Shown: positions 608 through 36,333 of the stretch, piece after piece
Position numbering within the stretch: position 1 is the first letter of the stretch
Layout of the letters: the number at the start of each line of letters is the position of its first letter
Source: Bacteroidales bacterium
Lineage (GTDB): Bacteria; Bacteroidota; Bacteroidia; Bacteroidales; Paludibacteraceae
DNA: 40,337 nt
Assembly: GCA_022784645.1 (NCBI GenBank)
Contig: JALFZG010000059.1
Coordinates: 1-40,337 of the forward strand
Reading direction: 5' to 3'
Program-made: the position numbers and the translations under genes
Notes under the pieces: model-generated
Databases searched by the model: none
What the model was told of the DNA's origin: nothing
Seen by the model: the letters and a program-made list of their open reading frames with translations, nothing else

Positions 608-720
608 CGAAAATCCTAAACTAAAATCCTAACCAAAATGCGCTCGATGCCTCGCTTGAAAGAGTAGTATTAGATGGATCGCTTCGCTCGAAATCCGAAC
701 TAAAATCCTGAGAAGAATCC
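608..720. repeat. ~110 bp direct repeat, copy 1
   Basis: This stretch matches 3017-3136 in the same orientation over about 110 bp with scattered mismatches. Shared strings include AACCAAAATGCGCTCGAT, GGATCGCTTCGCTCGA and AATCCGAACTAAAATCCTGA (ATCCGAACTAAAATCCTGA in copy 2). The two copies bracket the RloA/RloB genes. The rest of the 558-887 gap is AT-rich. It has a short run of TGAGCGGTGAG-like heptads at 580-605, resembling the longer array at 11018-11108, and an imperfect inverted repeat near 798-835 that could act as a weak terminator for the gene ending at 888. Confidence 0.75.
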
Positions 721-887
721 GGAACTATCTTTTGATTATAGGGTATTTAACTTCAAAATTTTCAAGATTTCTGCAAAAAAGCCACTTATCTTTCGAATTC
801 TTTGAAGGAAACTCTTTAGAAAATTCCAAAGAAAACTCCAAACGCTGTGATTGGGATTGTGCATGAATGATTGCAGGAAGTAGGCGT

Positions 888-3016: not shown

Positions 3017-3136
3017 ATCTTTAACCAAAATCCTAACCAAAATCCTAACCAAAATGCGCTCGATACCTCGCTTGAGGGAAGAGTATTAGAGGGATCGCTT
3101 CGCTCGACATCCGAACTAAAATCCTGAGAAGAATCC
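3017..3136. repeat. ~110 bp direct repeat, copy 2
   Basis: Second copy of the repeat at 608-720, in the same orientation, lying upstream of rloA. It carries an extra AACCAAAATCCT unit at its left end. The non-coding stretch 2729-3016 before it holds the rloA promoter and short iterations of a CACGAATGACACGAATAAC type, with nothing else recognisable. Confidence 0.75.
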
Positions 3137-3150
3137 TAAACAATTATTCG

Positions 3151-3335
3151 GTAGATAGCCATAGGGCTACTTGGAACGCGCGTAAGCGCTTATGGAACAG
3201 CCCGAAGGGCTACTTGGAACGCGCGTAAGCGCAAATGGAACGCCCCCTGGACACCTGGAACGCACGTAAGTGCTTATGGAACAGCCCTTTAGGGCTAACT
3301 GGAACGCACGCAAGTGCATATGGAACCATCCCCTT
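3151..3335. repeat. Tandem array of stem-loop units (~43-45 bp, four copies)
   Basis: Four adjacent units share TGGAACGC(G/A)CG(T/C)AAG(C/T)GC followed by ATGGAAC. In each unit a small hairpin has stem GCGC/GCGC or GCAC/GTGC around a GTAA or GCAA loop. Between units lies a second hairpin, AGCCC/GGGCT, with loop GAA or TTTA. The GCGC to GCAC change is matched by GCGC to GTGC on the other arm, a compensatory pair. The loops fit the GNRA tetraloop pattern. The array lies between the upstream direct repeat and the palindrome mosaic, with no credible coding content. Confidence 0.7.
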
Positions 3336-3469
3336 GGGCACGCTATACCGAAAAAGTACCGCCTTAAAAGCGAAGGGCAAACGAGCATGCTAAATTTCCA
3401 AATTCGCAAAGCGATTTCGAGATCTCTGCGGGAAAAAGGCTGCGGGCAGAGTGTGGGCGATGCGCGTTC

Positions 3470-3815
3470 ATCAGGAAGGTCGGAATGACCTGCAGCTCAG
3501 CTGCAGTTGGGCCGACTTCCGATTCCGCGCTCCCCATTCGAGCGAAGCTCTTTGGGGGCCCCAATATTGTCGGCACTTGGCCTCCGCTCTCCCCAAAAAT
3601 CAGAGATTTTCGGGGGCCCCGATAGGGTCGATAAGAAGGTCGGAATGACCTGCAGCTCTGCTGCAGTTGAGCCGACTTCCGATTCCGCTCTCCCCATTCG
3701 AGCGAAGCTCTTTGGGGGGCGTGGGGAGGACGGAGATACTATCTCCTACCAATAAACAATACGAAACCCAAAAATCAGAGATTTTCGGGGGCCCCGATAA
3801 GGTCGGCACTTGGGC
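3470..3815. repeat. Palindrome mosaic block 1
   Basis: A non-coding block downstream of the minus-strand lipoprotein gene, built from palindromic modules that recur elsewhere. Module B (GGTCGGAATGACC, then CTGCAG..CTGCAG closed by CCGACTTCC) occurs at about 3475 and 3636. Module C (CCCCATTCGAGCGAAGCTC then TTTGGGG) occurs at about 3533 and 3693. Module D (CCCCAAAAATCAGAGATTTT then CGGGG) occurs at about 3593 and 3768. Module A (GGAGATACTATCTCC) occurs at 3732-3746. The stretch 3336-3469 holds no recognisable gene. Confidence 0.75.
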
Positions 3816-3862
3816 GAAATGACAGATTGATTATTCAAAAGCGATGAGCCTTGAGCGGGGAG

Positions 3863-4813
3863 TTAGAACTCGAACTCGTACATGGGGTCAAGAGTGGTGC
3901 TGAGGGTGAAGGAGGAGTTGGCTTCGGAATGGAAGAACGAACCGGTGGCGCGGGTGATGCGATTGGGTTTCATCGAAACATCGGAGAAGGTGCGGGACTT
4001 GATGATATTGCCCGAAGCATCCTTCATGTTCACCGTGATGGATATGTGCTGAGAAGCCTCTGACAGTAGGCAATTGACTCCTAAGGGGATGTTCTGGAAT
4101 GTACTGATACCCATATCGCTTAAAACGAACTCCGTGCGATATCGATAGGTGCTTTCAGCCAAGCCAGTAGTGGGGTTGAAGATATATGCTGAAGTGGCGG
4201 ATGAGGAGGGGTTGAGGATAACCTCGCAGGAGGCCACATTGGCGGGAGTTTCATCGGTGGTTTTGATTTGGAACTTCGAGGTGATGCAAGGGCCAAGGTC
4301 GATGAGGACCGTGTTTGGTTGGTTGGCCAAAATAGTAACCGACTGATTGACAGCAAAGACACTGAGCAACTTCGAGGTTGTAATAGAGGCTTGGGAAGTG
4401 GAAGCAATAGCGGCAGCTGCTTCGCCAGCATCATTCGTTTTGTGTATTACCGCCACAAAATGGTAGTCGCCCGGGAGGAGCGAACTGGATATCGGTTCGG
4501 AAAAGTCCTCATCCACAGAGGCGTTCTTGGTGGTGCTGAAGACTAGCGTGTTATCCGAATTGAAGATCGCAAGCGAGATGCGGTTCATGCCTGCCTCGGA
4601 GGGTGAAACGCGACTCATGCCAGTAATAGAAGGAGCCTTATGGGAAGCCGGAGCATTGAAGGTTAGATCCTCAAACGTAAAGATGAAATCCGGGAAGGTG
4701 ATAGTCACTTCAACTGCTTGGTTGTTGTTTTGCACTTCGTTCGCCTTCTCACAAGAGACAGAAATTAGGGCGAAGAGGACGATGATTACGATGGCTGAAA
4801 GTTTACTTTTCAT
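3863..4813 (-). CDS. Mfa2/fimbrillin-like lipoprotein
   Basis: A 316-residue lipoprotein. A signal peptide ends in the lipobox ISVSC with Cys21 as the lipidated residue, followed by a low-complexity linker. The mature part looks like beta-rich domains. The strings ISLAIFNSDNTLVFST, LLPGDYHFVAVIH and a C-terminal KPNRITRATGSFF match the pattern of the FimB/Mfa2 family, which anchors or caps surface fimbriae in Bacteroidales. Surface anchoring is therefore likely. No major fimbrillin gene lies nearby, so it may be a stand-alone surface lipoprotein. Both flanks are palindrome-rich, and a 14-bp palindrome lies 35 bp upstream of the ATG. Family assignment is moderate, lipoprotein assignment strong. 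Confidence 0.65.
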   Translation of the reverse strand: MKSKLSAIVIIVLFALISVSCEKANEVQNNNQAVEVTITFPDFIFTFEDLTFNAPASHKAPSITGMSRVSPSEAGMNRISLAIFNSDNTLVFSTTKNASVDEDFSEPISSSLLPGDYHFVAVIHKTNDAGEAAAAIASTSQASITTSKLLSVFAVNQSVTILANQPNTVLIDLGPCITSKFQIKTTDETPANVASCEVILNPSSSATSAYIFNPTTGLAESTYRYRTEFVLSDMGISTFQNIPLGVNCLLSEASQHISITVNMKDASGNIIKSRTFSDVSMKPNRITRATGSFFHSEANSSFTLSTTLDPMYEFEF

Positions 4814-4847
4814 TTCGAAAAAAATTTAAGTAAAAAATATATTTTTT

Positions 4848-4861
4848 GGGATAAATATCCC
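4848..4861. promoter_or_regulatory. Palindrome upstream of Mfa2-like gene
   Basis: GGGATAAATATCCC is an interrupted palindrome with 6-bp arms, 35-48 bp upstream of the start at 4813. It could be an operator or a leader hairpin. No clear TAnnTTTG box was found beside it. Confidence 0.35.
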
Positions 4862-4894
4862 TTTCGGGAGACTTGGGGACAGAGGGAGCGCATT

Positions 4895-5370
4895 CATCCG
4901 GAAGGTCGCATGACCTGCAGCAATGCTGCTTGAAAGGACGGAGATACTATCTCCTGCCAACGAACAATACGAAGCCCATTCGATCGGAGCTCGATGGGGG
5001 CCTCGATGGAGGGAGCGCATTCATCCTGAAGGTCGCATGACCTGCAGCAATGCTGCTTGAAAGGACTGAGATACTATCTCCTGCCAACGAACAATACGAA
5101 GCCCATTCGAGCAGAGCTCGATGGGGCTTGGGGGAGGGAGCGCATTCATCCGGAAGGTCGCAAGACCTGCAGCAATGCTGCTTGAAAGGACGGAGATACT
5201 ATCTCCTGCCAATGAACCTCGCGTTCGGCACTTGGGTCGCAAGGCTGATTGCCGCTCCACTTAATCAGCGGGCGACCAAGGCTTCCGCTCTCCCCAAAAA
5301 TCAGAGATTTTCGAGGACCCCGAGATTTTGCGTTTCCCATTCGAGCAGAGCTCGATGGGGCTCGGGGGAG
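4895..5370. repeat. Palindrome mosaic block 2
   Basis: Three near-identical composites of ~110-125 bp lie in tandem: module B (GGTCGCATGACC, then GCAGCAATGCTGC) at about 4903, 5032 and 5155, followed by module A (GGAGATACTATCTCC and variants) at 4940, 5067 and 5192. The first two are followed by module C (CCCATT then CGAGCAGAGCTCG) at about 4976 and 5102. The third leads into TTAATCAGCGGGCGACCAAG, a near match to 7380-7399, then module D at 5293 and module C at about 5338. There is no plausible gene. The block separates the two lipoprotein genes. Confidence 0.75.
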
Positions 5371-5395
5371 GGAGACACCTTATATAATATATAAA

Positions 5396-5950
5396 GGGAG
5401 GGGGCAAAGAGAGGAAGGAGCAAAGAAGGGGGCAAAGGGAGGGGGCACAATGAGCCCCCTCGGTTAGACAGGGACCTATGGGTGCGTGAAACGCACCCTA
5501 TATAAACGGGGAAGGGGCCCTACTCTACTGAGGGGAGAGGGGGAAGGAGGAAAGAAGGGGAGAGAGAGGACGGAGGGAGGGAGGCCGCCTTAAGAAGGCG
5601 GCATTCCAGACGGGGAGGGGACGCGGATACTATCCGCGGCTAAGTGAACGATACGCCCCAAAGGGGGAGGGACCGATGGGGGCGGAAAACGCACCCTATA
5701 TAAACGGGGAAAAGGGCCCTACTCTACTGAGGGGAGAGGGGGAAGGAGCGGGAGGTGAGGAGACGGAGGGAGGGAGGCCGCCTTAAGGCGGCATTCCAGA
5801 CGGAGAGGGGACGCGGATACTATCCGCTACCAACGAACAATACGAAGCCCATTCGAGCAGAGCTCGATGGGGCACCGAGGGACCGATGGGGGCGGAAAAC
5901 GCACCCGATATAAACGGGAAAAGGGCCTACTCTACTGAGGGGAGAGGGGG
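5396..5950. repeat. Palindrome mosaic block 3, purine-rich
   Basis: Extremely purine-rich on the plus strand. Module G (GGGGGCACAATGAGCCCCC) lies at about 5441. Module F (GGGTGCGTGAAACGCACCC or GGGGGCGGAAAACGCACCC, then TATATAAACGGG and CTACTCTACTGAGG) lies at about 5470, 5670 and 5880. Module E (GCCGCCTTAAGAAGGCGGC, or the short form GCCGCCTTAAGGCGGC) lies at about 5583 and 5772. Module A with the GCGGAT/ATCCGC stem lies at 5633-5647 and 5813-5827. The last copy of F runs into the 3' end of the gene ending at 5932 and supplies its stop codon. Confidence 0.75.
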
Positions 5951-6822
5951 AAGGAGCGGGAGGTGAGGATGCGGAGGCGGTAGGTGGCAGCTTTGGTGCC
6001 GGCCTTGGCGATGGTGGAGGAAGGAACGAAAGAGAACGTCTTGCGGCCTTCATCACAGAGGTAACGGGCATTTTCACTGCCCTCGGTGAGGGCGATAGGC
6101 GGAAGGGAGGCCGACTCGAGCAAGGAGCAGAGCATTGCGAACGACTCCGAATCACCGGGATACAACGCACGAAGGCGTTTGGCCTCTTCCACCGATGGGA
6201 TATGCCATTTCAACAGGGTCATCTCCTGATACGCATCCGCTATATCTCTTGCCTGAAGCGAGTCAGATACATGATTGGCAGAAGGGAGCCCCTCCCACTC
6301 CACCAAAGAGAGGTAAGTGAGACGAAGGCTATCCGCAAGGGTGTCAGCAAACACCACGAGATGTCCATCTACAAAAGCAGGAAGGGAGGTTGGGACCTCT
6401 GCCGAATCAACAGGAGGCAGATCATCGAAGTTTATAAAGATGGTGTCGTTTTCCTCCGTTTCCCCTACTCCACTGCCGGAAAGGAACAAGCAGACGGTCT
6501 TGGGTTGGTCGCGCAGGATACACTCCACAGAAGCAAAAGCACCCTTAGTTGACTGGAGGATAAGCTGATACTGCATCCAAGTGGGAAGGGAGAAAGAGGC
6601 TTTTTCCTGAGGCGAGAGGAGGGAAGCTTGAGCTCGAGTGCGGTAGTCATTGTTGGTGCGGACGGTGATCGATAGGGGATAAGCATCCTCAGAGAGGGTG
6701 CTCTCAGCAGCCACCACCACAGTGAGGGTGGTCTCAGGGAGGAGGGTATCAGGCTGCGGTTGACAAGCCACCAGCAGCAAGAGAAGCAACAATGAAAAAC
6801 GATAAAGGAGAGAACGAACCAT
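5932..6822 (-). CDS. Lipoprotein of unknown function
   Basis: I place the start at the ATG complementary to 6820-6822, giving 296 residues with signal peptide MVRSLLYRF followed by seven leucines, VA and Cys20, a clear lipobox. A longer open frame to 7122 is rejected because it would begin inside the promoter. The mature protein starts with a beta-rich half. Its C-terminal quarter has WHIPSVEEAKRL, ARYLCDEGRKTFSF and TYRLRILTSR, reminiscent of the W-x-P-x-x-x-E modules of Bacteroidota surface proteins annotated as DUF1566-like. That resemblance is weak and from memory. The final residues and stop codon (RSFPLSPQ-stop) are encoded by intergenic repeat module F. A surface lipoprotein is likely; the function is unknown. 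Confidence 0.65.
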   Translation of the reverse strand: MVRSLLYRFSLLLLLLLVACQPQPDTLLPETTLTVVVAAESTLSEDAYPLSITVRTNNDYRTRAQASLLSPQEKASFSLPTWMQYQLILQSTKGAFASVECILRDQPKTVCLFLSGSGVGETEENDTIFINFDDLPPVDSAEVPTSLPAFVDGHLVVFADTLADSLRLTYLSLVEWEGLPSANHVSDSLQARDIADAYQEMTLLKWHIPSVEEAKRLRALYPGDSESFAMLCSLLESASLPPIALTEGSENARYLCDEGRKTFSFVPSSTIAKAGTKAATYRLRILTSRSFPLSPQ

Positions 6823-7086
6823 GCGAAAAATAATTGGGAGAGTCTGCCTAAGTACACAACGACGGTAGGGAAACGGGGAACGTTTTCCTACGCCTTCGGA
6901 AGTAAAGAGGCAGAGCAATCCTGCGTCTGAAGAATCCTTACAACCATAGGTCATGCGGGCATCATGCGCGCGAGAAAAAGGGGCTGACTGCTGACGCAAT
7001 GACCGAGGTATTACATGTTTTTTCGCCCAAGGGGCGAGATAGGGTCTCGCAAAAAGCAAGCAGAGAGTACTACAAAGTAGTAAACC
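6823..7086 (-). promoter_or_regulatory. Long structured 5' leader of lipoprotein gene
   Basis: The predicted transcript has about 260 nt before the chosen ATG. Near its 5' end TACTAC/GTAGTA pair around three bases (7068-7082). Next come two hairpins that cannot form together: GCGAGA/TCTCGC (7045-7050 with 7034-7039) and CGCCC/GGGCG (7032-7036 with 7024-7028), which share 7034-7036. This is the arrangement of an attenuator or riboswitch expression platform, but no known aptamer was recognised. Confidence 0.45.
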
Positions 7087-7091
7087 GACTG

Positions 7092-7123
7092 CAAAGTTAC
7101 GATTTTTTATTAAGAAAAACAAA
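7092..7123 (-). promoter_or_regulatory. Bacteroidota promoter of lipoprotein gene
   Basis: On the minus strand TTTG (7120-7123), a 20-bp spacer, then TAACTTTG (7092-7099): an exact match to the TTTG/TAnnTTTG consensus. It argues for translation starting at 6822 and against the longer frame beginning at 7122. Confidence 0.75.
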
Positions 7124-7184
7124 CTTTTCTTAATATTAACACAACATTTTGACGTTTTTGGGTATAAAAATTGTCGAAATGTTA

Positions 7185-7600
7185 AAAAAGCGGGTCGAGC
7201 GGAAGGCTCGATGGGGACCCCGGGAGGGAAGGACGGAGATACTATCTCCTACCAACGAACAATACGAAGCCCATTCGAGCGAAGCTCTCTGGGGGCGAGG
7301 AGAAAGGGACGGAGATACTATCCCTACCAATAAACTTCGCGTTCGGCACTTGAGTCGCAAGGCTGATTGCCGCTCCACTTAATCAGCGGGCAACCAAGGC
7401 CTCCGCTCTCCCCATTCGAGCGAAGCTCTTTGGGGGCCCCGAGATTTTGCGAAGCCCATTCGAGCGAAGGGCTCTCTGGGAGACCCCGATAAGATCTGCA
7501 CTTGGTCTCCGCTCTCCCCAAAAATCAAAGATTTTCGGGGGCCCCGTGATTTTGCTCTTCCCATTCGAGCGGAGGGCTCTCTGGGGGGCCCGGGAGGGAG
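7185..7600. repeat. Palindrome mosaic block 4
   Basis: Non-coding block between the lipoprotein promoter and the end of ugd. Module A lies at 7235-7249 and, with a shortened arm, at about 7311-7323. Module C variants lie at about 7194, 7270, 7411, 7458 and 7560, with loop changes GAA, GGAAG and GAAGG inside a conserved GAGC/GCTC stem. Module D lies at about 7516. CCCATTCGAGC repeats dominate. Confidence 0.75.
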
Positions 7601-7605
7601 GGGAC

Positions 7606-8961
7606 TTAGTCTCGGCGGAAGATATCGCGGGTATAGACCTTATCGATAACATCCTCGAGGCAAGCATCGAAACGGTTGGCGATGATGGCCTTGGAGCGGG
7701 CCTTGAAGTCCTCCAGGTTATTCACCACCTGACTACCGAAGAAGAGGGTACCATCTTCGAGCGTGGGCTCATAGATGATGATCTCGGCACCCTTAGCCTT
7801 GATACGTTTCATAATACCCTGGATAGCCGACTGGCGGAAATTATCGGAATTGGACTTCATGGTGAGGCGATATACACCGATAACAGGCACAGTGGCCTCA
7901 CCGGCTTTGCCATACTGATTGCAGGTGCTATAGTCATACCAACCGGCCTTACGGAGGACCGCATCAGCAATGTAATCCTTGCGGGTACGATTGGACTCCA
8001 CGATGGCCGACATCATGTTTTGCGGGACATCGGCATAGTTAGCCAAGAGCTGCTTGGTGTCCTTAGGGAGGCAGTAACCACCATAACCGAAGGAGGGGTT
8101 GTTGTAATGGGTGCCGATACGGGGGTCGAGACCGATGCCTTGGATGATAGCAGCCGAATCAAGGCCCTTGACCTCCGCATAGGTATCGAGCTCATTGAAG
8201 TAGCTGACGCGAAGAGCGAGGTAGGTGTTGGCAAAGAGCTTGACGGCTTCGGCCTCCTTGAGGCCCATGAACAAAGTGGCAATATCCTCTTTGATAGCGC
8301 CCTCATGGAGCAACTGAGCGAACGTATGCGCGAGTTGTTCGGCTTCGGGATTGCCAATGGCAGCAATAGCCGCATTCTCCTCATCCCATTTGCTATCCTG
8401 ATCAGCGGGCAGGAGCTTGGGGTAGCCTACGATGATGCGCGAAGGCCAGAGGTTGTCTTCGAGCGCCTTGCTCTCGCGGAGGAACTCCGGAGAGAAAAGG
8501 AGATTGAAATGTTTGCCCTTGAGGGCAGGATCGGTGAGGAACTTCAAGGCATACTTGACATAGAGACTACGGCAATAGCCCACAGGGATGGTACTCTTGA
8601 TGATCATGACTGCATCGGGATTGACGCTGATGACCAGATTAATCACATCCTCGATATGATGGGTATCGAAGAAGTTCTTCACAGGATCGTAATTGGTGGG
8701 GGCTGCAATGACTACATAATCGGCATCCTTATAAGCCGATGCGCCATCTAAAGTGGCAGTGAGGTTCAATTGCTTTTCAGCAAAATACTTCTCGATATAC
8801 TCATCCTGAATGGGCGAGATGCGCTGATTGATTTTTTCTACTTTCTCAGGGATGACATCCACAGCAGTGACCTGGTGATGCTGAGCAAGGAGGGTGGCAA
8901 TACTGAGGCCAACATAGCCGGTACCGGCTACAGCGATTTTAAGATCATCAAAATTTCTCAT
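7606..8961 (-). CDS. ugd: UDP-glucose 6-dehydrogenase
   Basis: A 451-residue nucleotide-sugar dehydrogenase that oxidises UDP-glucose to UDP-glucuronate with two NAD+ for cytoplasmic supply of polysaccharide precursors. The Rossmann motif GTGYVG is at 13-18. The substrate-loop segment [18 protein letters not shown] is at 153-170, and the catalytic cysteine lies in [13 protein letters not shown] (Cys297). The C-terminal part has [18 protein letters not shown] sequence (here [14 protein letters not shown]) and ends KVYTRDIF. Similarity to E. coli Ugd is strong throughout. Its length is slightly above that enzyme because of a small insert near 180-200. It has its own promoter and a G+C-rich leader, and lies 1.16 kb downstream of the antiterminator gene. 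Confidence 0.95.
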
Positions 8962-9028
8962 AACTGCTACGTTTACAGCACCTTGCGCGGGTTGCGCGAG
9001 AGCGCGCGCACAAGGCGAGATATATACT
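8962..9028 (-). promoter_or_regulatory. Hairpin-rich 5' leader of ugd
   Basis: The roughly 67-nt leader begins with CGAG/CTCG arms around seven bases (about 9014-9028). It continues with a G+C-rich inverted repeat in which CCTTG(TG)CGCG pairs with CGCGCAAGG. The A+T-rich surroundings make the G+C content stand out. It may control translation or transcription of ugd; no known riboswitch was recognised. Confidence 0.4.
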
Positions 9029-9034
9029 CGGGTG

Positions 9035-9066
9035 CAAAGTTACAACTTTTTTCTGAATTGGGCAAA
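9035..9066 (-). promoter_or_regulatory. Bacteroidota promoter of ugd
   Basis: On the minus strand TTTG (9063-9066), 20 bp, TAACTTTG (9035-9042): consensus elements with consensus spacing. It shows ugd can be transcribed independently of the upstream antiterminator gene. Confidence 0.75.
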
Positions 9067-9104
9067 TAAAAAATGCTTTTTCTGCGAAAAAGAGGGAAAA
9101 GACC

Positions 9105-10117
9105 CTCTAAATCTCCATGATCGACCCTCTAAATCTCCCTAGGGAGACTTGGAAGACGGAGCGAGAGGGACGCCTTAAGAAGGCGGCATTCCGGACGGAG
9201 AGGGGACGCGGATACTATCCGCGGCTAAGTGAACGATACGCCCCTAGGGAGAGGAAAGAAGGATGAAGAAACTGAAGGAGGGAGAGGAGGAAAGAAGGGA
9301 GGCAGGGGCTAAGGGGAGAGGAGGAAAGGGAGGGAGAGGGATAAGACGGAGATACTATCTCCTACCAACGAACAATACGGACGAAAGAGGAAAGAGGGGG
9401 AAGAGAGGGCGGAGGGGAAAAAGAGGGCGGAGGAACGGACGGAGAGGGAGGAGGGAGCTGCTCTACTGAAGGGAGGCGGGGAAAGAGAGGGAGAGAGGAG
9501 CTAAGGGAGGGGGCACAATGAGCCCCCTCGGTTAGACAGGGACCTATGGGTGCGTAAAACGCACCCAATATAAACGGGAATAGGGTCTACTCTACTGAGG
9601 GGAAGCGGGAAAAGGGAGGACGGAGGGGACAGAGAGGGAGGCAGAAGCAAAGGATGGGGAGAAGCTGAAGGAGGGAGAGGGATGAGACGGAGATACTATC
9701 TCCTACCAACGAACAATACGGACGAAAGAGAAAAGAGGGGAAAGAGAGGGAGGCAGAAGCAAAGGGAGAGGAGCAAAGGGAGGGAGGGGGAAAAAGAGGG
9801 CGGAGGAACGGACGGTAGGGAGGAGGGAGAGAGACGCGGATAGTATCCGCGGCTAAGTGAACGATACACCCCAAAGGGAGAGGAGGAAAGAAGGGAGACA
9901 GAAGCTAAGAGAGAGGAGGAGAGGAGGAAAGAAGGGAGGGGGCTAAGGGAGGGGGCACAATGAGCCCCCTCGGTTAGACAGGGACCTATGGGTGCGTGAC
10001 ACGCACCCTATATAAACGGGAAAAGGGCCCTACTCTACTGAGGGGAGAGGGGACTAAGGGAGGGGCAAAGAGAGACGGGAGCTAAGGGAGGAGAGAAGGG
10101 ATTAAGAGAGGCGGGAG
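9105..10117. repeat. Palindrome mosaic block 5, 1 kb, purine-rich
   Basis: About 1 kb of nearly uninterrupted plus-strand purines (GGAGGGAGAGG-type runs) punctuated by the palindromic modules. E lies at about 9170. A lies at 9208-9222, 9348-9362, 9691-9705 and 9836-9850, the last with loop AGT instead of ACT. The G+F composite lies at about 9505-9600 and 9950-10045. GAGCTAAGGGAGG recurs several times and runs into the 3' end of the gene at 10118, where CTAAGG contains its stop codon. Open frames here encode only Gly/Arg/Glu-rich sequence and are not credible genes. Confidence 0.75.
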
Positions 10118-10993
10118 CTAAGGGGAGACGACTTCGAAGATCTCGCGATGGACGCCACGGAGAGCAATGGTGATGCCACCGAGTTGCATCACCAACTGAC
10201 GGTCACGATGGATGCGGACGATATAACCCTCATGACCCGCGAAAGGACCTGTGAGCAGACGCAGTTTCACGCGATTCTCTGCGAACTTCTCAAACGCATC
10301 GCGCAGGAGCGTGATCTCATAGGGGTTGGACTTCATCAGATCCATGAAAGGCTTCATCTGAGCATGGGGAATGGAGGCCGGACGATTGGTAGCACAATCT
10401 TTAACCAGATAGATCATCGGGAAATTATCCATGAGGAACCGTTCGAGATTTCGGGTTTCGCCTTGAAGAAAGACTAATCCACTGACCGTCAGGGGGTCCT
10501 GAGGTTCGGAATCAGATGAGGATTTACCGGAGTTCTTGGCGGATTTGGATGTTTTTTTGGGGGATTTAGGTGCTGGTTTTTGATTGGTTTTCTTGTTTCT
10601 TCTCGGGGAACGATGTACGAAAGTGGGAGGGGTAAAATCACCTTGAGCTGCTATATAATCGATGAGTTCAAGGAAGCGCTCTACCCTACCATGCGGGATA
10701 TAGACATAGCCCCAAGGGAGGCCATCCGAATCTAGGCGGAAGGCGTGTTCCAACGCCCCATAGGGGGCTGGCGCTGAAGCGCGTTCCATTGTTCCAGTAG
10801 CCTGAGGCTGTTCCAAAGCAGTGGAGAGAGCGGAGGATTGGGTGCACGATGAGCACCCAGATAGAACAGATACCGGAGCATTCGAGGGAGATACCCTCTC
10901 TGGCTCTTTAAGGGGAGAGGGGGATGGATAGATGATACGGAGGCCTTTAGGAAGGCGCTTGAGAGAAGAGGAAGTTGAGCAATCCTGCGTCAT
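10118..10993 (-). CDS. UpxY-like NusG-family transcription antiterminator
   Basis: A 291-residue NusG paralogue. The NGN domain starts at LPWGYVYIPHGRVERFLELI (92-111). It is interrupted by a Lys/Ser-rich low-complexity insert (about 128-166) and resumes at VSGLVFLQG (170-178) through YEITLLRD. A C-terminal KOW domain follows, with LLTGPFAGHEGYIVRI (246-261) and LGGITIALRGVHREIFEVV. Relatives (UpxY) let RNA polymerase read through long Bacteroides capsule operons, fitting the surrounding polysaccharide genes. It lies after capD-gmd-rmlA rather than at the head of an operon. Residues 1-80 are low-complexity and largely encoded by repeat-like DNA, so the ATG at 10789 (residue 69) is a possible true start. 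The insert and N-terminus are unusual for this normally ~180-residue family. Confidence 0.75.
   Translation of the reverse strand: MTQDCSTSSSLKRLPKGLRIIYPSPSPLKEPERVSPSNAPVSVLSGCSSCTQSSALSTALEQPQATGTMERASAPAPYGALEHAFRLDSDGLPWGYVYIPHGRVERFLELIDYIAAQGDFTPPTFVHRSPRRNKKTNQKPAPKSPKKTSKSAKNSGKSSSDSEPQDPLTVSGLVFLQGETRNLERFLMDNFPMIYLVKDCATNRPASIPHAQMKPFMDLMKSNPYEITLLRDAFEKFAENRVKLRLLTGPFAGHEGYIVRIHRDRQLVMQLGGITIALRGVHREIFEVVSP
10735..10865. repeat. Repeat modules inside the antiterminator gene
   Basis: GGGTGCACGATGAGCACCC at about 10841-10859 matches intergenic module G (GGGGGCACAATGAGCCCCC) with the stem changed on both arms, and the following AGATAGAACAGATACC resembles the module G flank. On the minus strand, TGGAACAATGGAACGCGC, a TTCA loop, GCGC and CCCCCTATGGGG (about 10751-10797) resemble the stem-loop array at 3151-3335. 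Residues about 45-85 are encoded by this DNA. Confidence 0.55.
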
Positions 10994-16491: not shown

Positions 16492-19032
16492 ATGGCAAGA
16501 AACCAATTTGCAAGTAAGTTTGGTACGATGGCGGCCATTGCCGGTTCTGCCGTTGGCCTGGGAAACATTTGGAAATTCCCCTACGTTGCCGGTCAGAATG
16601 GTGGCGCGGCCTTTTTGATTATTTACATTGTTATCTCATTGTTGATTTCGGTACCTGTGATGCTTTCAGAGTTTGTGATTGGCAGGAAAGGTCAGAGCAA
16701 CACGTATCGGAGTTTTGTTCGCGTAGGCGGCAGCAAAGGTTGGGGAGCGGTAGGCGGAATAGAGATTCTTGCGGGCCTCACTATTTTGGCTTTTTATTGC
16801 GTAGTGGCAGGTTGGTCGCTCCAATACATCTTCCATAGCATCGGTTATGGCTTTGAGGGGATGACGTATGCCGAGATGTCGGATATGTTTGACGGCTTCA
16901 TCAACAGCTGGAAACCAGTACTTTGGACGATTCTGTTTTTGGGGATGAACTGCATTATTTTGGCTTTTGGCGTAAGTAAAGGTATCGAGCGTTGCTCGAA
17001 GTTTATGATTCCTGCACTGTTCTTGATTCTCCTGATGCTAGCCATCGTATCCATTTGGCAGGATGGCTGGGCTAAGGGTGCAGCTTTCTTGTTGAAACCG
17101 GATTGGAGTGCAGTAACCGGTCAGACGATTATCATGGCGCTCGGTCAGTCGTTTTTCTCGCTGAGTTTGGGTATGGCGGCCATGGTGACGTACGGTTCTT
17201 ACATACAGAAAGATCAGAGTTTGGTCAGCGTGTCGCTAACGGTAACGGCCGCCACTGTATTGATGGCAATATTGGCAGGATTGGCTATTTTCCCGAGCGT
17301 ATTTACGTATGGTGTAGAGGTAACGAGCGGTCCTGCACTGGTGTTTAAGACCTTGCCTCCGCTGTTTGCGCAACTCCCGGGCGGACGGATAGTCAGTGTG
17401 CTGTTTTTTGTGCTGCTGTTCTTTGCAGCCATCACGTCATCGTTCTCACTGCTGGAATCGGGAGCTGCATATATATCTGAGGAGTGGAAATTCCGCGGCA
17501 AACCGGTAGGACGAGTAGCCGCATTGGCGATACTCTTCGTATTGGTGGGTTCGCTTTCGGTAGTGTGCGCACTGAGTCAGATTGAGGGTTCGAGCCTCAA
17601 GATTTTGGGATTCACGGTATTTGATTTCACGGATCTCTTGACCTCCAATTTCATCCTTCCATTGGGCGGAATTGCTGCATGTATATTGGTAGGACAGTTA
17701 GTAGATAAAGAAGTGGTATTCAACGAGTTGACTTCTGACGGCAGATACAAGTCAAAGATGGTAAAAGGTTTCTACTGGTTGGCTCGTTACGTTTGTCCGA
17801 TTATTATTTTCTACATGTTTATCAATGGCGTCAATTCGATAGAGCGCCCGAGTGCCCCGGTAGCCGAACAGGTGGTAGTATCGTATCCGAAGGCTGAATA
17901 TGAGCAGTCGAAGATGGTGCTGATGCATACTCCCGGTCGCGAGTTGTATGATGGCGTTATTCATCCTGCAGCCGGTCTTTTTGAAAGCTATTTCAGCATT
18001 GAGAAGGCCGCAGAGCAGCATGATGCTATTAAGGCTCAGCTAAAGAAACAGGGTTGCGAAGTATATACGATAGAGGAGGTACTGTATTCGATGCAACGGG
18101 ATTCGCTCGAAGCACTTGCCGGGAAAGCTCTGTGTTATGAACCAGCCGATGAGGCATACGAACGTCAGACGCTCCTGCAGATGAGCACGGAAGATTTGAT
18201 TCGTACGATTCTGCTTCGTCCGACTGTAAGTCTCAGCCCAACGGACAAGAACACAGGTGTAGAAGCCACCTATAGTCAGACTCCTTTGAGCAACCTGTAT
18301 TTCATGCGTGGGCAAGCAATCGTAACGCCCGCTGGCATAGTGATGGGCAGGATGAACTCTCAGCAACGAGCTGATGAAGTGGAACTTGTGCGCTATTGTC
18401 TCTCGCATTTGGGCATTCACCCGATATATTGTGTAACGGGCGAAGATGCGTATATGGAGGGCGATGATTATCTGGCCTTTGGTACGGTATCGGTAATAGG
18501 CGATGGTTTGCGCACGAATATGGCCGCCATTCAGCAGCTGATGGCTGCTAACTGCCTCGGACACGACACAGTAGTGGTGGTGCACGATAAGATGCGCATT
18601 CAAAAGCAGATGGCTCTTGACACCTATTTTAATATTATAGATAAGGACCTGGTAACGCTCTGTGCGAACCGCTATGATGCCAAGGAAGGTGACGAAGCTT
18701 ACCTGAGTTGCGATATCTACGTAAAGCAAGCCGGTGAACAAAACGAGCAGACGGGCAATTACGGGTTGGTTGCAAGCAGCTTAGGCTATAGAGAATGGCT
18801 GGAGAACCGAGGAGTGGAGATTATCCGCATCTCCGATGAAGATGCTGCTCATTATGCCAACACCTACCTCACTATAGCTCCAAGACATATCGTGGCCATT
18901 CAAGGACAGTCCATTGATTTGGGCAATCAGTTGAGGAAGCATGATGTGATGGTAGATTGGGTAGATGCCTCTACATTGGTGAAGGGCTATGGCGGCATTC
19001 GTCAGCTCACGCAAGTATTGCAACGAAAATAA
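16492..19032 (+). CDS. Sodium:neurotransmitter symporter fused to degenerate arginine-deiminase domain
   Basis: An 846-residue fusion. Residues 1-450 are an NSS/SNF sodium-coupled amino-acid transporter: AIAGSAVGLGNIWKFPY at 15-31 is the TM1 signature, and eleven hydrophobic segments can be counted, the last at about 428-449. Residues ~475-846 read as an arginine-deiminase/GME-fold domain: NLYFMRG (601-607), EGDD (656-659), GLRTN (672-676), MALD (707-710), TIAPRHIVAI (794-803), GYGGIRQ (832-838). The canonical motifs are FxRD, EGGD, MHLD and GGxRC, so Asp is Gly607, His is Ala708 and the nucleophilic Cys is Gln838. The domain should be catalytically dead. With N-in topology and eleven helices it would lie in the periplasm. 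A consensus promoter precedes it and a terminator follows. The transported substrate is unknown. Confidence 0.85.
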   Translation: MARNQFASKFGTMAAIAGSAVGLGNIWKFPYVAGQNGGAAFLIIYIVISLLISVPVMLSEFVIGRKGQSNTYRSFVRVGGSKGWGAVGGIEILAGLTILAFYCVVAGWSLQYIFHSIGYGFEGMTYAEMSDMFDGFINSWKPVLWTILFLGMNCIILAFGVSKGIERCSKFMIPALFLILLMLAIVSIWQDGWAKGAAFLLKPDWSAVTGQTIIMALGQSFFSLSLGMAAMVTYGSYIQKDQSLVSVSLTVTAATVLMAILAGLAIFPSVFTYGVEVTSGPALVFKTLPPLFAQLPGGRIVSVLFFVLLFFAAITSSFSLLESGAAYISEEWKFRGKPVGRVAALAILFVLVGSLSVVCALSQIEGSSLKILGFTVFDFTDLLTSNFILPLGGIAACILVGQLVDKEVVFNELTSDGRYKSKMVKGFYWLARYVCPIIIFYMFINGVNSIERPSAPVAEQVVVSYPKAEYEQSKMVLMHTPGRELYDGVIHPAAGLFESYFSIEKAAEQHDAIKAQLKKQGCEVYTIEEVLYSMQRDSLEALAGKALCYEPADEAYERQTLLQMSTEDLIRTILLRPTVSLSPTDKNTGVEATYSQTPLSNLYFMRGQAIVTPAGIVMGRMNSQQRADEVELVRYCLSHLGIHPIYCVTGEDAYMEGDDYLAFGTVSVIGDGLRTNMAAIQQLMAANCLGHDTVVVVHDKMRIQKQMALDTYFNIIDKDLVTLCANRYDAKEGDEAYLSCDIYVKQAGEQNEQTGNYGLVASSLGYREWLENRGVEIIRISDEDAAHYANTYLTIAPRHIVAIQGQSIDLGNQLRKHDVMVDWVDASTLVKGYGGIRQLTQVLQRK

Positions 19033-20331: not shown

Positions 20332-20441
20332 AAGAGCTGCAAATGATGAAAATAGGCGGGCAAAAATCCAACCTTAAAAATTGCGAAAATTGGGATTCTG
20401 CATTTCGCTAAAGGGTATCTTTCAGGAGAGGATTTCGTGCT

Positions 20442-20510
20442 AAAAAAAGAAAGGATGTCATCTCGACATCCCAATCTTTACTTAACCTTAAATCTAATAC
20501 CATGAAAAAC
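20442..20510 (-). ncRNA. Candidate ~70-nt small RNA or prematurely terminated leader
   Basis: A consensus promoter (20517-20548) is followed only ~40 nt after the predicted start by a hairpin, GGATGTC (20453-20459) with GACATCC (20465-20471) and a 5-nt loop. A T-rich tract (TTTCTTTTTTT) comes directly after it on the minus strand. The transcript would be about 70 nt. Its only open frame has no convincing coding potential. It lies between queH (ends 20805) and the SGNH hydrolase gene (starts 20331), so it could be an independent sRNA or an attenuator of the hydrolase gene. The hairpin would also terminate queH transcripts. Confidence 0.55.
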
Positions 20511-20516
20511 ACGATG

Positions 20517-21365: not shown

Positions 21366-21430
21366 AAATAGAGAAAAATTGAAGTCTCTCACCTGTTCTC
21401 CCTATGCGAGAGAGAGGAGATGGGAGAAAG

Positions 21431-21490
21431 ACGCAGATAATATCTGCTGCCAATGAACAATACAATTCCCCAAAATCAAAGATTTTCGGG
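21431..21490. repeat. Palindrome mosaic block 6 (modules A and D)
   Basis: Module A with a third stem version, GCAGATAATATCTGC (21433-21447), followed by the conserved GCCAATGAACAATAC flank and module D, CCCCAAAATCAAAG then ATTTTCGGGG (21468-21491). The order and orientation match copies 14-18 kb away. Confidence 0.8.
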
Positions 21491-21633: not shown

Positions 21634-21880
21634 GGCGGAATCAGATGATGAAGCCAAAGGCGGAATCAAATGATGAAGTCAAAGGCGGAATCTGAGATGA
21701 AGCCAAAGGCAGAATCAGATGATGGAGCCAAAGGCGGGATCAGATGATGGAGCCAAAGGCAGAATCAGATGATGGAGCCAAAGGCAGAATCTGAAATGGA
21801 GTCAAAGTCGGGATCAGATGATGAAGCCAAAAGCGGAATCTGATGATGAAGCCAAAGGCAGCATCGGATGAGAGCCATCA
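21634..21880. repeat. ~25-bp tandem repeat, ten copies
   Basis: About ten degenerate copies of GGCGGAATCAGATGATGAAG plus CCAAA, spaced 24-25 bp. They begin 15 bp past the stop codon at 21896 and are interrupted by stops in the gene's frame, so they are non-coding. Copies differ at fixed positions (GCGGAATC, GCAGAATC, GCGGGATC). Confidence 0.85.
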
Positions 21881-34950: not shown

Positions 34951-36333
34951 ATGGCAGAAGAAAAGATTACAATAGTCGATTTACGGAAAGCGATAGCCAA
35001 GCAAACCGAGATAGAGGAAGCGCAAGTGAACGCATTTCTCAACCAACTCATTGCTACTATCAAAGATGGACTTCGGAAAGATAAGCTGGTGAAAATCAGC
35101 GGTTTGGGCACATTCAAACTGCAATGGGTTGAACCCAGAAAGAGTGTAAATATCTCTACGGGGGAACCTATCGTAATCGAGGGGTATCAGAAGCTGTCGT
35201 TCACTCCGGAGCAGAGCGTGAAAGAGCGCATCAATGAGCCGTATGCGGATTTGGCACCCGTGATTCTTGACGAACAAGGCAACGTCATCGAAGGACAAGA
35301 GCCGAAGTCCGACCCCATGCAGAAATTCGATGAGCAAGCCCTTGAAATTAAGGATATCTTGGCCGATTTGGGTGCTGATCTCACCCAAGAAGAGCCTGCT
35401 GCAACCGAAACAAAAGTGGATGAACCGATAGTTGAAAGCAACGAGGAATCAGCTATTGAGGAGTCGGCTGCTGAGATTGTTGAAACTCCAACATTGGAGA
35501 CTCCCGAAGTGGAAGTTCCCAAGGTTGAAGAACCCGAAGTAGAGACTCCCGAAGTGGAAGCTCCCAAGGTTGAAGAACCCGAAGTGGAGACTCCCGAAGG
35601 GGAAGCTCCCAAGGTTGAAGAACCCGAAGTGGAGACTCCCAAGGTTGAAGAACCCGAAGTGGAGACTCCCAAGGTTGAAGAACCCGAAGTGGAGACTCCC
35701 GAAGCAACTGAAGTAAGAAGCGAGAAGAAAAGAAAAGAAGAGAAGAAAGAGAAACCATTCAGAGGATGGTTGGTAGCCATAATTACCGTTCTCTCCCTCA
35801 TTATATTGCTATTTATTTGCGGCCTTTTCCTTCAGAATAAGATTGAAGAATGGGCGGACATGCTGAATGGTAAGATTGGTGTAGAAGAAACGATGTTGGA
35901 TTACGAGGATTATTCTTCGGATGCTGTTTCTTCCTCTGCGAATATCGTTGTGCTTTCGAATGATTCGGCTAATACGGAGGCAGTTACGGATAGTGCAACC
36001 GCAGAAAACGGTGATTCTTCCGCTTTGGCCGAGGCAGATAAGCCATTGCCCAAAACGGATTTCTACAAAGAGCGCATTTATACCGAATTTATCGGTTTTG
36101 AGACCGTTAGAGAAGGCAGTCGTTTGACTTGGATTGCCAAAAAGTTTTACGATAATAAGGAACTTTGGGTGTTTATTTATGAAGCCAACAGAGAAAAAAT
36201 TAAGGATCCGAGCACTGTGACGGTAGGTATGCAGCTGAAAATTCCGGCTCTGCCCGATGAGTTGTCTGACCCGAACAATATGAAGGCGCAACACCTGATT
36301 AAGAAACTTCAAGAACAATATTTGAACCAATAA
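34951..36333 (+). CDS. HU-domain / transmembrane / LysM fusion protein
   Basis: A 460-residue protein with four parts. Residues 5-95 are an HU/CCDC81-like DNA-binding domain (TIVDLRKAIAKQTEIEEAQV, LVKISGLGTFKLQWVEPRKS). Residues ~100-255 are an acidic linker ending in tandem KVEEPEVETP repeats. A basic stretch (EKKRKEEKKEKPFRG, 258-272) precedes a single transmembrane helix (273-294). A periplasmic region ends in a LysM-like domain (about 384-432: TVREGSRLTWIAKKFYDNKE, then KIKDPSTVTVGMQLKIP). The basic cluster before the helix supports DNA-binding domain inside and LysM outside. It could tether chromosome to peptidoglycan. HU-SPOR fusions with comparable logic occur in Flavobacteriia. It lies 3 bp downstream of the HU gene. 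Confidence 0.88.
   Translation: MAEEKITIVDLRKAIAKQTEIEEAQVNAFLNQLIATIKDGLRKDKLVKISGLGTFKLQWVEPRKSVNISTGEPIVIEGYQKLSFTPEQSVKERINEPYADLAPVILDEQGNVIEGQEPKSDPMQKFDEQALEIKDILADLGADLTQEEPAATETKVDEPIVESNEESAIEESAAEIVETPTLETPEVEVPKVEEPEVETPEVEAPKVEEPEVETPEGEAPKVEEPEVETPKVEEPEVETPKVEEPEVETPEATEVRSEKKRKEEKKEKPFRGWLVAIITVLSLIILLFICGLFLQNKIEEWADMLNGKIGVEETMLDYEDYSSDAVSSSANIVVLSNDSANTEAVTDSATAENGDSSALAEADKPLPKTDFYKERIYTEFIGFETVREGSRLTWIAKKFYDNKELWVFIYEANREKIKDPSTVTVGMQLKIPALPDELSDPNNMKAQHLIKKLQEQYLNQ
35500..35703 (+). repeat. 30-bp coding repeats in the HU-LysM linker
   Basis: Tandem 30-bp units encoding KVEEPEVETP, some with EVEAP or EGEAP variants, form the acidic Pro/Glu/Val linker at residues 184-251. 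In-frame gain or loss of units would change linker length without disturbing the frame. Confidence 0.85.

What the first reader, a model, noticed from the sequence alone, without database searches (positions are those of the whole stretch)
3470..10117. Modular intergenic palindromes with compensatory stem changes and fixed orientation
Seen: at least seven short palindromic modules (A-G) recur in five blocks between 3.4 and 10.1 kb and again at 21.4 kb. Module A occurs about 13 times. Its stem is GGAGAT/ATCTCC, GCGGAT/ATCCGC or GCAGAT/ATCTGC, so both the second and third base pairs change on both arms together, while the 3-nt centre and the CAA(C/T)GAACAATAC flank persist. Every copy of A has the same strand orientation and lies between minus-strand genes. 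None was seen in the plus-strand half. Inference: selection keeps the structure, not the sequence, as RNA in mRNA tails and leaders or as single-stranded DNA for a REP-like mobile element. I know no named family that matches.
Basis: partly seen in the sequence, partly recalled or inferred. Interest (0 to 1): 0.78.

Follow-up and report, generated by a model that had tools for sequence, protein, structure and literature searches.

The report
Hairpin repeats and their DprA-fused transposases
The repeated DNA hairpins between these bacterial genes belong to at least two families whose members also sit in or beside genes predicted to encode a hairpin-cutting transposase fused to a DprA-like DNA-binding domain, and those proteins likely spread them through the genome.

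Summary
The repeats are real. Module A has 13 copies in the window, all on one strand, and at least 53 in the genome (E<=1e-5). Its stem covaries (97.1% of cells paired; 33 two-sided changes against 10.5 in shuffles). It is a REP-like element tied to a predicted RAYT (REP-associated tyrosine transposase) gene outside the window, whose stop codon lies inside a module A hairpin. Module E pairs separately with a homologous RAYT gene that carries E's tail and hairpin in its linker and 3' flank. The first protein is predicted to be a Y1/HUH transposase with a DprA-like C-terminal domain. In relatives, 59 of 73 such genes carry a hairpin of one grammar in their linker, against a shuffle mean of 0.28. 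A TCNATT-tailed version gave 669 matches in 151 genus genomes, is commoner where the gene is found (93 of 109 genomes against 17 of 42), and pairs at free stem positions in 141 of 150 listed matches. REP-RAYT systems, and REPs inside tnpA, are known. The DprA-like fusion, non-GTAG tails and mosaic of cognate families look new. Mobilisation by the RAYT is inferred.

The parts
3724..3765 (-). module A copy (tail GTATTGTTTATTGG then hairpin GGAGAT-AGT-ATCTCC); abuts module C
4932..4973 (-). module A copy, GGAGAT stem; first of a 127-bp tandem array
5059..5100 (-). module A copy, GGAGAT stem with one broken pair
5184..5225 (-). module A copy, GGAGAT stem, tail diverges after GAAC
5615..5657 (-). 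module A copy, GCGGAT stem, TAAGTGAACGATAC tail
5805..5846 (-). module A copy, GCGGAT stem, CAACGAACAATAC tail
7227..7268 (-). module A copy, GGAGAT stem
7303..7343 (-). module A copy, damaged stem (one base short)
9200..9242 (-). module A copy, GCGGAT stem, TAAGTGAACGATAC tail
9340..9381 (-). module A copy, GGAGAT stem; in a 124-nt unit repeated 341 bp on (83% alike)
9681..9722 (-). module A copy in the second unit of that repeat; G073 has one GGAGAT copy in the orthologous block, aligned here (which of the two units is its ortholog is not certain)
9828..9870 (-). module A copy, GCGGAT stem, TAAGTGAACGATAC tail; aligned to a copy in the orthologous block of G073
21425..21466 (-). module A copy, GCAGAT stem; a copy lies in the matching stretch of G073 (L225:6817-6858)
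5480..5508 (-). module E copy: tail CGTTTATATA then hairpin GGGTGCGT-TTC-ACGCACCC; same tail and hairpin core as in the RAYT2 gene
5678..5706 (-). module E copy, degraded hairpin (not matched by the exact pattern)
5888..5916 (-). module E copy, degraded hairpin (not matched by the exact pattern)
9548..9576 (-). module E copy
9990..10018 (-). module E copy, GGGTGCGT-GTC-ACGCACCC
5584..5602 (+). module F copy (GCCGCCTT-AAG-AAGGCGGC); further copies at 5777-5792 and 9171-9185; a related, imperfect palindrome occurs twice in the RAYT1 linker (weak link)

Best explanation
Modules A and E are two REP-like hairpin families, each of which recurs in or beside its own predicted RAYT gene in this genome (A at C84, E at C14), and the protein of that gene likely recognised the hairpin as single-stranded DNA and copied it into intergenic sites. 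Shown: A overlaps the stop codon of the C84 gene, and E lies in the linker and 244 nt past the stop of the C14 gene. Shown: 22 aligned family members keep the HUH histidines and a tyrosine in the Y..NP motif. Shown: relatives carry other hairpins of the same grammar, mostly in the linker, and copy numbers differ between sister species at orthologous loci. Predicted: an N-terminal IS200/RAYT fold and a C-terminal DprA-like Rossmann domain. Inferred: cutting at the hairpin, spread by transposition, and a role for the DprA-like domain in holding or passing on the excised single strand. Local tandem duplication then likely enlarged the clusters in the window. Once inserted, the hairpins look tolerated downstream of genes rather than needed there.
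Against: No transposition, cutting or binding was observed. No perfectly clean empty site was found, because flanks are other repeats: of 4 sites searched in G073 both flanks were found for one, where module A is absent but other repeats fill the place. The two module A genomes are sister species, so that co-occurrence is one event. Tandem repeats explain part of the window's copy number. The C84 gene lacks the linker hairpin usual in its relatives. 14 of 73 genes have no linker hairpin of this grammar; 16 of 109 genomes with the gene hold no genus-type repeat and 17 of 42 without it do; of 5 genomes reached through named loci one (L190, Xylanibacter brevis) had none. Most copies lack the GTAG foot: 16 of 75 have it. 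Pfam finds no DprA domain in 22 members and nothing in RAYT2.
Confidence: 0.8

Rival explanations
1. RNA elements: the hairpins are kept for mRNA 3'-end formation or stability downstream of genes, and the RAYT link is incidental.
For: Stem covariation; most copies lie downstream of a co-oriented gene in G073 (31 of 33) and few lie between divergent genes (3 of 40 in this genome, 0 of 19 in G073).
Against: None of the 4 terminator-like sites is a module A copy and shuffles give more; RNA folds are modest (z -1.4 to -2.1); orientation outside the window is only 23 of 40; the hairpins are built into RAYT linkers and stops.
Confidence: 0.1
2. Passive mosaic repeats spread only by recombination and tandem duplication, without a transposase.
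For: 127-bp and 341-bp spaced units and shared modules in the window.
Against: 40 of the 53 copies at E<=1e-5 lie on other contigs; specific pairing of two hairpin families with two RAYT genes; genus-wide association with the gene.
Confidence: 0.08
3. DNA-binding sites (dyads) for a dimeric regulator or nucleoid protein.
For: A GATANTATC dyad core is shared by most compact module A copies.
Against: The arms change together while pairing is kept, and across relatives the stem is nearly free in sequence, unlike a sequence-read site; a one-sided tail of about 10-14 nt is conserved.
Confidence: 0.02

Closest known systems
REP / RAYT (TnpAREP) systems and REPtrons (PMC2817692 passages; PMC6006769 sections; PMC3116915 listing only)
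   Same: Dispersed intergenic hairpins with covarying stems; each family sits next to its own HUH-Tyr transposase gene; mosaic clusters.
   Different: A DprA-like C-terminal domain; mostly no GT[AG]G foot but a one-sided tail (GTATTGTTCGTTGG, CGTTWATATA or TCNATT); REPs sit in the linker more often than as flanks; ruminant-gut Bacteroidales.
TnpAREP subclass 2.4 of Quentin et al. 2018 (PMC6006769, sections read)
   Same: [quoted passage not shown] subclass present in Bacteroidetes; WQ (seen in the consensus).
   Different: Subclass 2.4 is described as lacking a core extension and having NH[IFV]H; here a DprA-like extension and DH[LV]H in the 22 aligned proteins.
CGTC-tagged REPs (PMC3733652, sections read)
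   Same: Module A stems are followed by (C)GTC; short palindromes; Bacteroidetes is among the phyla reported.
   Different: The paper says CGTC repeats apparently lack a dedicated transposase; here one is adjacent, the C is part of the stem and stems are 6 bp rather than 8-9.
BIME / NIME mosaic elements
   Same: Several palindromic modules combined in intergenic blocks.
   Different: Dispersed module A copies are mostly single or direct, not regular inverted pairs. NIME likeness is recalled, not tested.

Membership tests
REP (repetitive extragenic palindrome), general | 20-40-nt palindrome in many dispersed copies, stem kept by compensatory change | tested here: met
   53 copies at E<=1e-5; covariation
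REP, general | extragenic location | tested here: met
   6 of 61 compact copies inside ORFs of at least 150 aa covering 67% of the loci; G073 6 of 42, 71%
canonical GTAG REP | GT[AG]G directly 5' of the stem | tested here: not met
   GTAG in 16 of 75 scored copies, GCAG in 37; module E has no such foot
CGTC REP | unpaired CGTC tag at one end, 8-9-bp stem | tested here: not met
   stem is 6 bp and the C of CGTC pairs
RAYT / TnpAREP | HUH histidines and catalytic Tyr with a Y..NP motif | tested here: met
   H87, H89, Y148, N152, P153 invariant in 22 aligned proteins
RAYT / TnpAREP | IS200/RAYT fold | tested here: met
   [not shown]
RAYT / TnpAREP | gene associated with REPs of its own family | tested here: met
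RAYT / TnpAREP | single-strand cleavage at the REP | not testable with these tools
   needs a bench assay
TnpAREP subclass 2.4 | REP in frame between HuH and Y | tested here: met
   59 of 73 family members, but not the C84 gene itself
TnpAREP subclass 2.4 | no C-terminal core extension; NH[IFV]H | tested here: not met
   DprA-like extension at about 165-316; DH[LV]H in 22
DprA | Rossmann fold of DprA | tested here: met
   [not shown]
REPIN / BIME | paired REPs in inverted orientation as the mobile unit | tested here: inconclusive
   inverted pairs at the RAYT unit and its derivatives; other copies mostly single or direct
intrinsic terminator | G+C-rich stem followed by a T run | tested here: not met
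   no module A copy among the 4 sites in 3400-10200

The most novel reading that the evidence does not exclude
A separate branch of REP propagation: a RAYT fused to a DprA-like single-strand-binding domain cuts out its hairpin as ssDNA and hands the strand to annealing or RecA-type recombination, so REPs spread by templated copying rather than classical transposition. The transposase gene carries the hairpin inside its own reading frame, so gene and repeat stay matched as stems drift, and different paralogues build mosaic intergenic clusters from their separate families.
Probability: 0.3. Interest if true: 0.78.

Novelty: new variant of a known kind. Interest (0 to 1): 0.63.

Why it matters
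How REPs multiply is a long-standing open question. This genus offers many related genomes in which a transposase paralogue can be matched to its own hairpin by sequence, often with the hairpin written into the gene, so co-evolution and specificity can be tested directly. The DprA-like domain suggests a concrete link between REP excision and ssDNA-handling proteins; three searches of the held library listed no paper describing such a fusion.

Tried and rejected
Rfam gathering scan of the window: only FopS, nothing on the modules. The first own-genome pattern missed the main tail type, because the two tails differ by one base in length. Model R1 was built with the stem one column out of register; therefore counted the wrong pairs, and repeats the count in the right register on the same alignment. 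R1 searches rest mainly on sequence and were not repeated with a corrected model. One search scored 150 of 1414 candidates; the genus search used stricter filters and saw 42 instead of 87 matches in this genome. The C8 RAYT-type gene (L008) was considered first as the partner of A and rejected: it has a GGGGACTGTCCCC hairpin on one side and a close variant on the other, and no module A beside it. A strict TCCATT-CCGAATG pattern found only 9 matches in 8 of 151 genomes, 5 of them beside a RAYT gene, which first suggested no spread in relatives; the looser pattern reversed that. Module F with RAYT1 is only a resemblance. Modules B, C, D and G were not assigned to any gene. Terminator reading rejected. 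The cruder hairpin-length test at stops gave stems of at least 7 bp in 26 of 97 genes against 89 of 1153 control stops. In one search, 73 distinct genes from 110 loci were used; the rest lacked both anchor motifs or were duplicates. One search used 97 distinct genes of 109 loci. In one search, 75 of 87 rows were scored; the rest, mostly the longer-stemmed form, had no AT-NNN-AT core in the place searched. The tests ignore phylogeny and genome completeness, and 150 of 669 matches were visible for the pairing count.

Full report
OBSERVATION. The window is contig C27 of a 2.29-Mb draft genome in 90 contigs. The host is therefore likely an uncultured ruminant-gut Bacteroidales of the Paludibacteraceae type. 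Module A occurs 13 times in the window in one orientation. A 42-position model finds 87 matches at E<=1 in the genome, 53 at E<=1e-5, 40 of these on other contigs (150 of 1414 candidates were scored, so a lower bound). Stems in 75 scored copies: GGAGAT/ATCTCC 39, GCTGAT/ATCTGC with one mismatch 13, GCGGAT 10, GCAGAT 4, GCGAAT 1, GGCGAT 1, and 7 damaged. On 76 distinct rows 97.1% of cells pair (shuffles 88.4%), with 33 two-sided changes (shuffles 10.5); the count of pair types does not exceed shuffles; no shift of register equals it. These counts hold few independent events; the genus-wide test below is stronger.

WHERE COPIES LIE. Of 61 compact copies in this genome, 6 lie inside ORFs of at least 150 aa although such ORFs cover 67% of the loci (G073: 6 of 42, 71%); 27 of 40 classified sites are between co-directional genes, 10 convergent and 3 divergent (G073: 11, 8 and 0 of 19). 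The upstream gene is on the element's strand in 36 of 53 cases, 23 of 40 outside the window, and 31 of 33 in G073. The strict orientation seen in the window is local. Genes here are plain ORFs, so these numbers are rough.

THE TRANSPOSASE OF MODULE A. A Pfam Y1_Tnp search found a 394-aa frame on C8 and a weak match on C84. The C84 gene (L009:902-1894, 330 aa) stops inside a module A hairpin: GGACGGAGA-TAA-TATCTCC, followed by the usual tail, with an inverted copy, mismatched at one stem pair, about 185 bp further on. A broken copy on C68 and 3' remnants on C78 and C80 have the same arrangement with a longer-stemmed hairpin. Several loci keep the upstream and 3' parts of the C84 unit but lack the gene (C32, C80:1-2550, C4 and, in G073, C39 and C55), as deletion derivatives would. 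In G073 a RAYT 3' end at a contig edge (84% identical over 81 residues) runs into GGCGATAGTATCGCC with the TAAGT-type tail, a weak model match (E 0.011). Of 151 genus genomes this one (42 matches) and G073 (39) hold many module A matches, three others hold one weak match each.

A SECOND PAIR. The paralogue RAYT2 (C14, L139:12270-13424, 384 aa) aligns to the C84 family over 284 of 343 columns (hhalign E 4.7e-42), though Pfam finds nothing in it. Its linker contains CGTTAATATA-ATTG-GTGCGT-GTG-ACGCAC, and 244 nt past its stop lies CGTTTATATA-CGAA-GTGCGT-GTG-ACGCAC. Window module E is CGTTTATATA-GG-GTGCGT-NNN-ACGCAC on the same reading. Genome-wide the exact pattern occurs 7 times here (2 at RAYT2, 3 in the window, 1 each on C54 and C82) and 7 times in G073 (2 at RAYT2, 5 in the contig orthologous to the window); reversed controls are 0. 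Two RAYTs, two families, mixed in one set of intergenic blocks. A third paralogue, RAYT1 (E 6.4e-53), has two imperfect palindromes resembling module F in its linker, which is weak.

THE FAMILY RULE. In relatives (30 genus loci including C84, 80 named loci) the hairpin has one grammar: stem of at least 6 bp, AT before a 3-nt loop and AT after it. It lies in the linker between the HUH motif and the PF[IV]R motif in 59 of 73 genes (shuffle mean 0.28, maximum 3), in the 3' region in 32 of 73, upstream in 19 of 73, in the later core in 4 of 73, and in at least one of the first three in 65 of 73. The C84 gene has only the 3' one. Near stops: 36 of 97 against 17 of 693. With the tail TCNATT the family has 669 matches in 110 of 151 genus genomes and 1 match of the reversed control. 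Two positions per arm were left free in that pattern; in 150 listed matches the outer pair is complementary in 146 (71 expected from column composition), the inner in 145 (49 expected), both in 141. Genomes with the gene have at least one match in 93 of 109, those without in 17 of 42. Five genomes reached through named loci gave 15, 7, 1, 0 and 9 matches, no control match. This genome and G073 have none of that type and carry A and E instead.

MECHANISM. Shown: cognate placement, family-wide hairpin grammar, co-occurrence, and copy-number difference between sister species at orthologous loci: L101/L227 has 3 here and 1 in G073; the window block at 9.1-10.1 kb has 4 here and 2 in G073; L020/L230 has 1 here and 3 compact copies in G073. 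Others are equal (L113/L248). Inferred: the RAYT binds the hairpin with its tail as ssDNA, cuts, and the copy is inserted elsewhere; the DprA-like part may hold the strand. Tandem duplication adds copies locally (D15, 124-nt unit, 341-bp spacing).

KNOWN WORK. Read in part: PMC3733652 (abstract, sections 6, 15, 16, one passage search), PMC6006769 (abstract, sections 11, 12, 23, 25, passages), PMC2817692 (passages). They establish REP-RAYT pairing, in-frame REPs in subclass 2.4, REP-supplied stop codons and a preference for 3' flanks of genes. PMC3116915 was seen in listings only. Against these the new points are the DprA-like fusion, the non-GTAG tails, the genus-wide covarying family in ruminant-gut Bacteroidales and two cognate pairs building one mosaic.

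VERDICT. An unusual, well-supported variant of REP-RAYT biology. Mobility is inferred.

Noticed in passing
window 619-728 and 3035-3144: A 110-nt direct repeat (90% alike) flanks the RloB (PF13707) and AAA ATPase gene pair at 888-2728, as if that cassette were a unit.
   Followed up: no
window 3159-3339: 43-bp repeats TGGAAC-hairpin-TGGAAC whose stems change on both arms (GCGCGTAAGCGC / GCACGTAAGTGC); arrays of the same style lie at other loci of this genome and G073.
   Followed up: partly
window 20441-20512 (-): Rfam RF04319 BTncRNA_FopS sRNA, 78.9 bits.
   Followed up: no
L008:997-2178 (C8): A different RAYT-type gene with a GGGGACTGTCCCC hairpin on one side and a close variant on the other, like the TIR-flanked genes (TIRYTs) of PMC3733652.
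   Followed up: no
window 21634-21871: 25-bp tandem repeat, 9.6 copies, just beyond the lone module A copy.
   Followed up: no
window 16492-19032: One ORF matching a sodium-dependent transporter in its first half and arginine deiminase in its second.
   Followed up: no
window 35437-35734: 15/30/45-nt coding repeats inside an ORF with an IHF/HU-like N-terminus and a LysM-type C-terminus.
   Followed up: no
L069, after the RAYT stop: Regularly spaced repeats of about 46 nt that look like a CRISPR array directly follow a RAYT gene in G041 (CRISPR label recalled).
   Followed up: no
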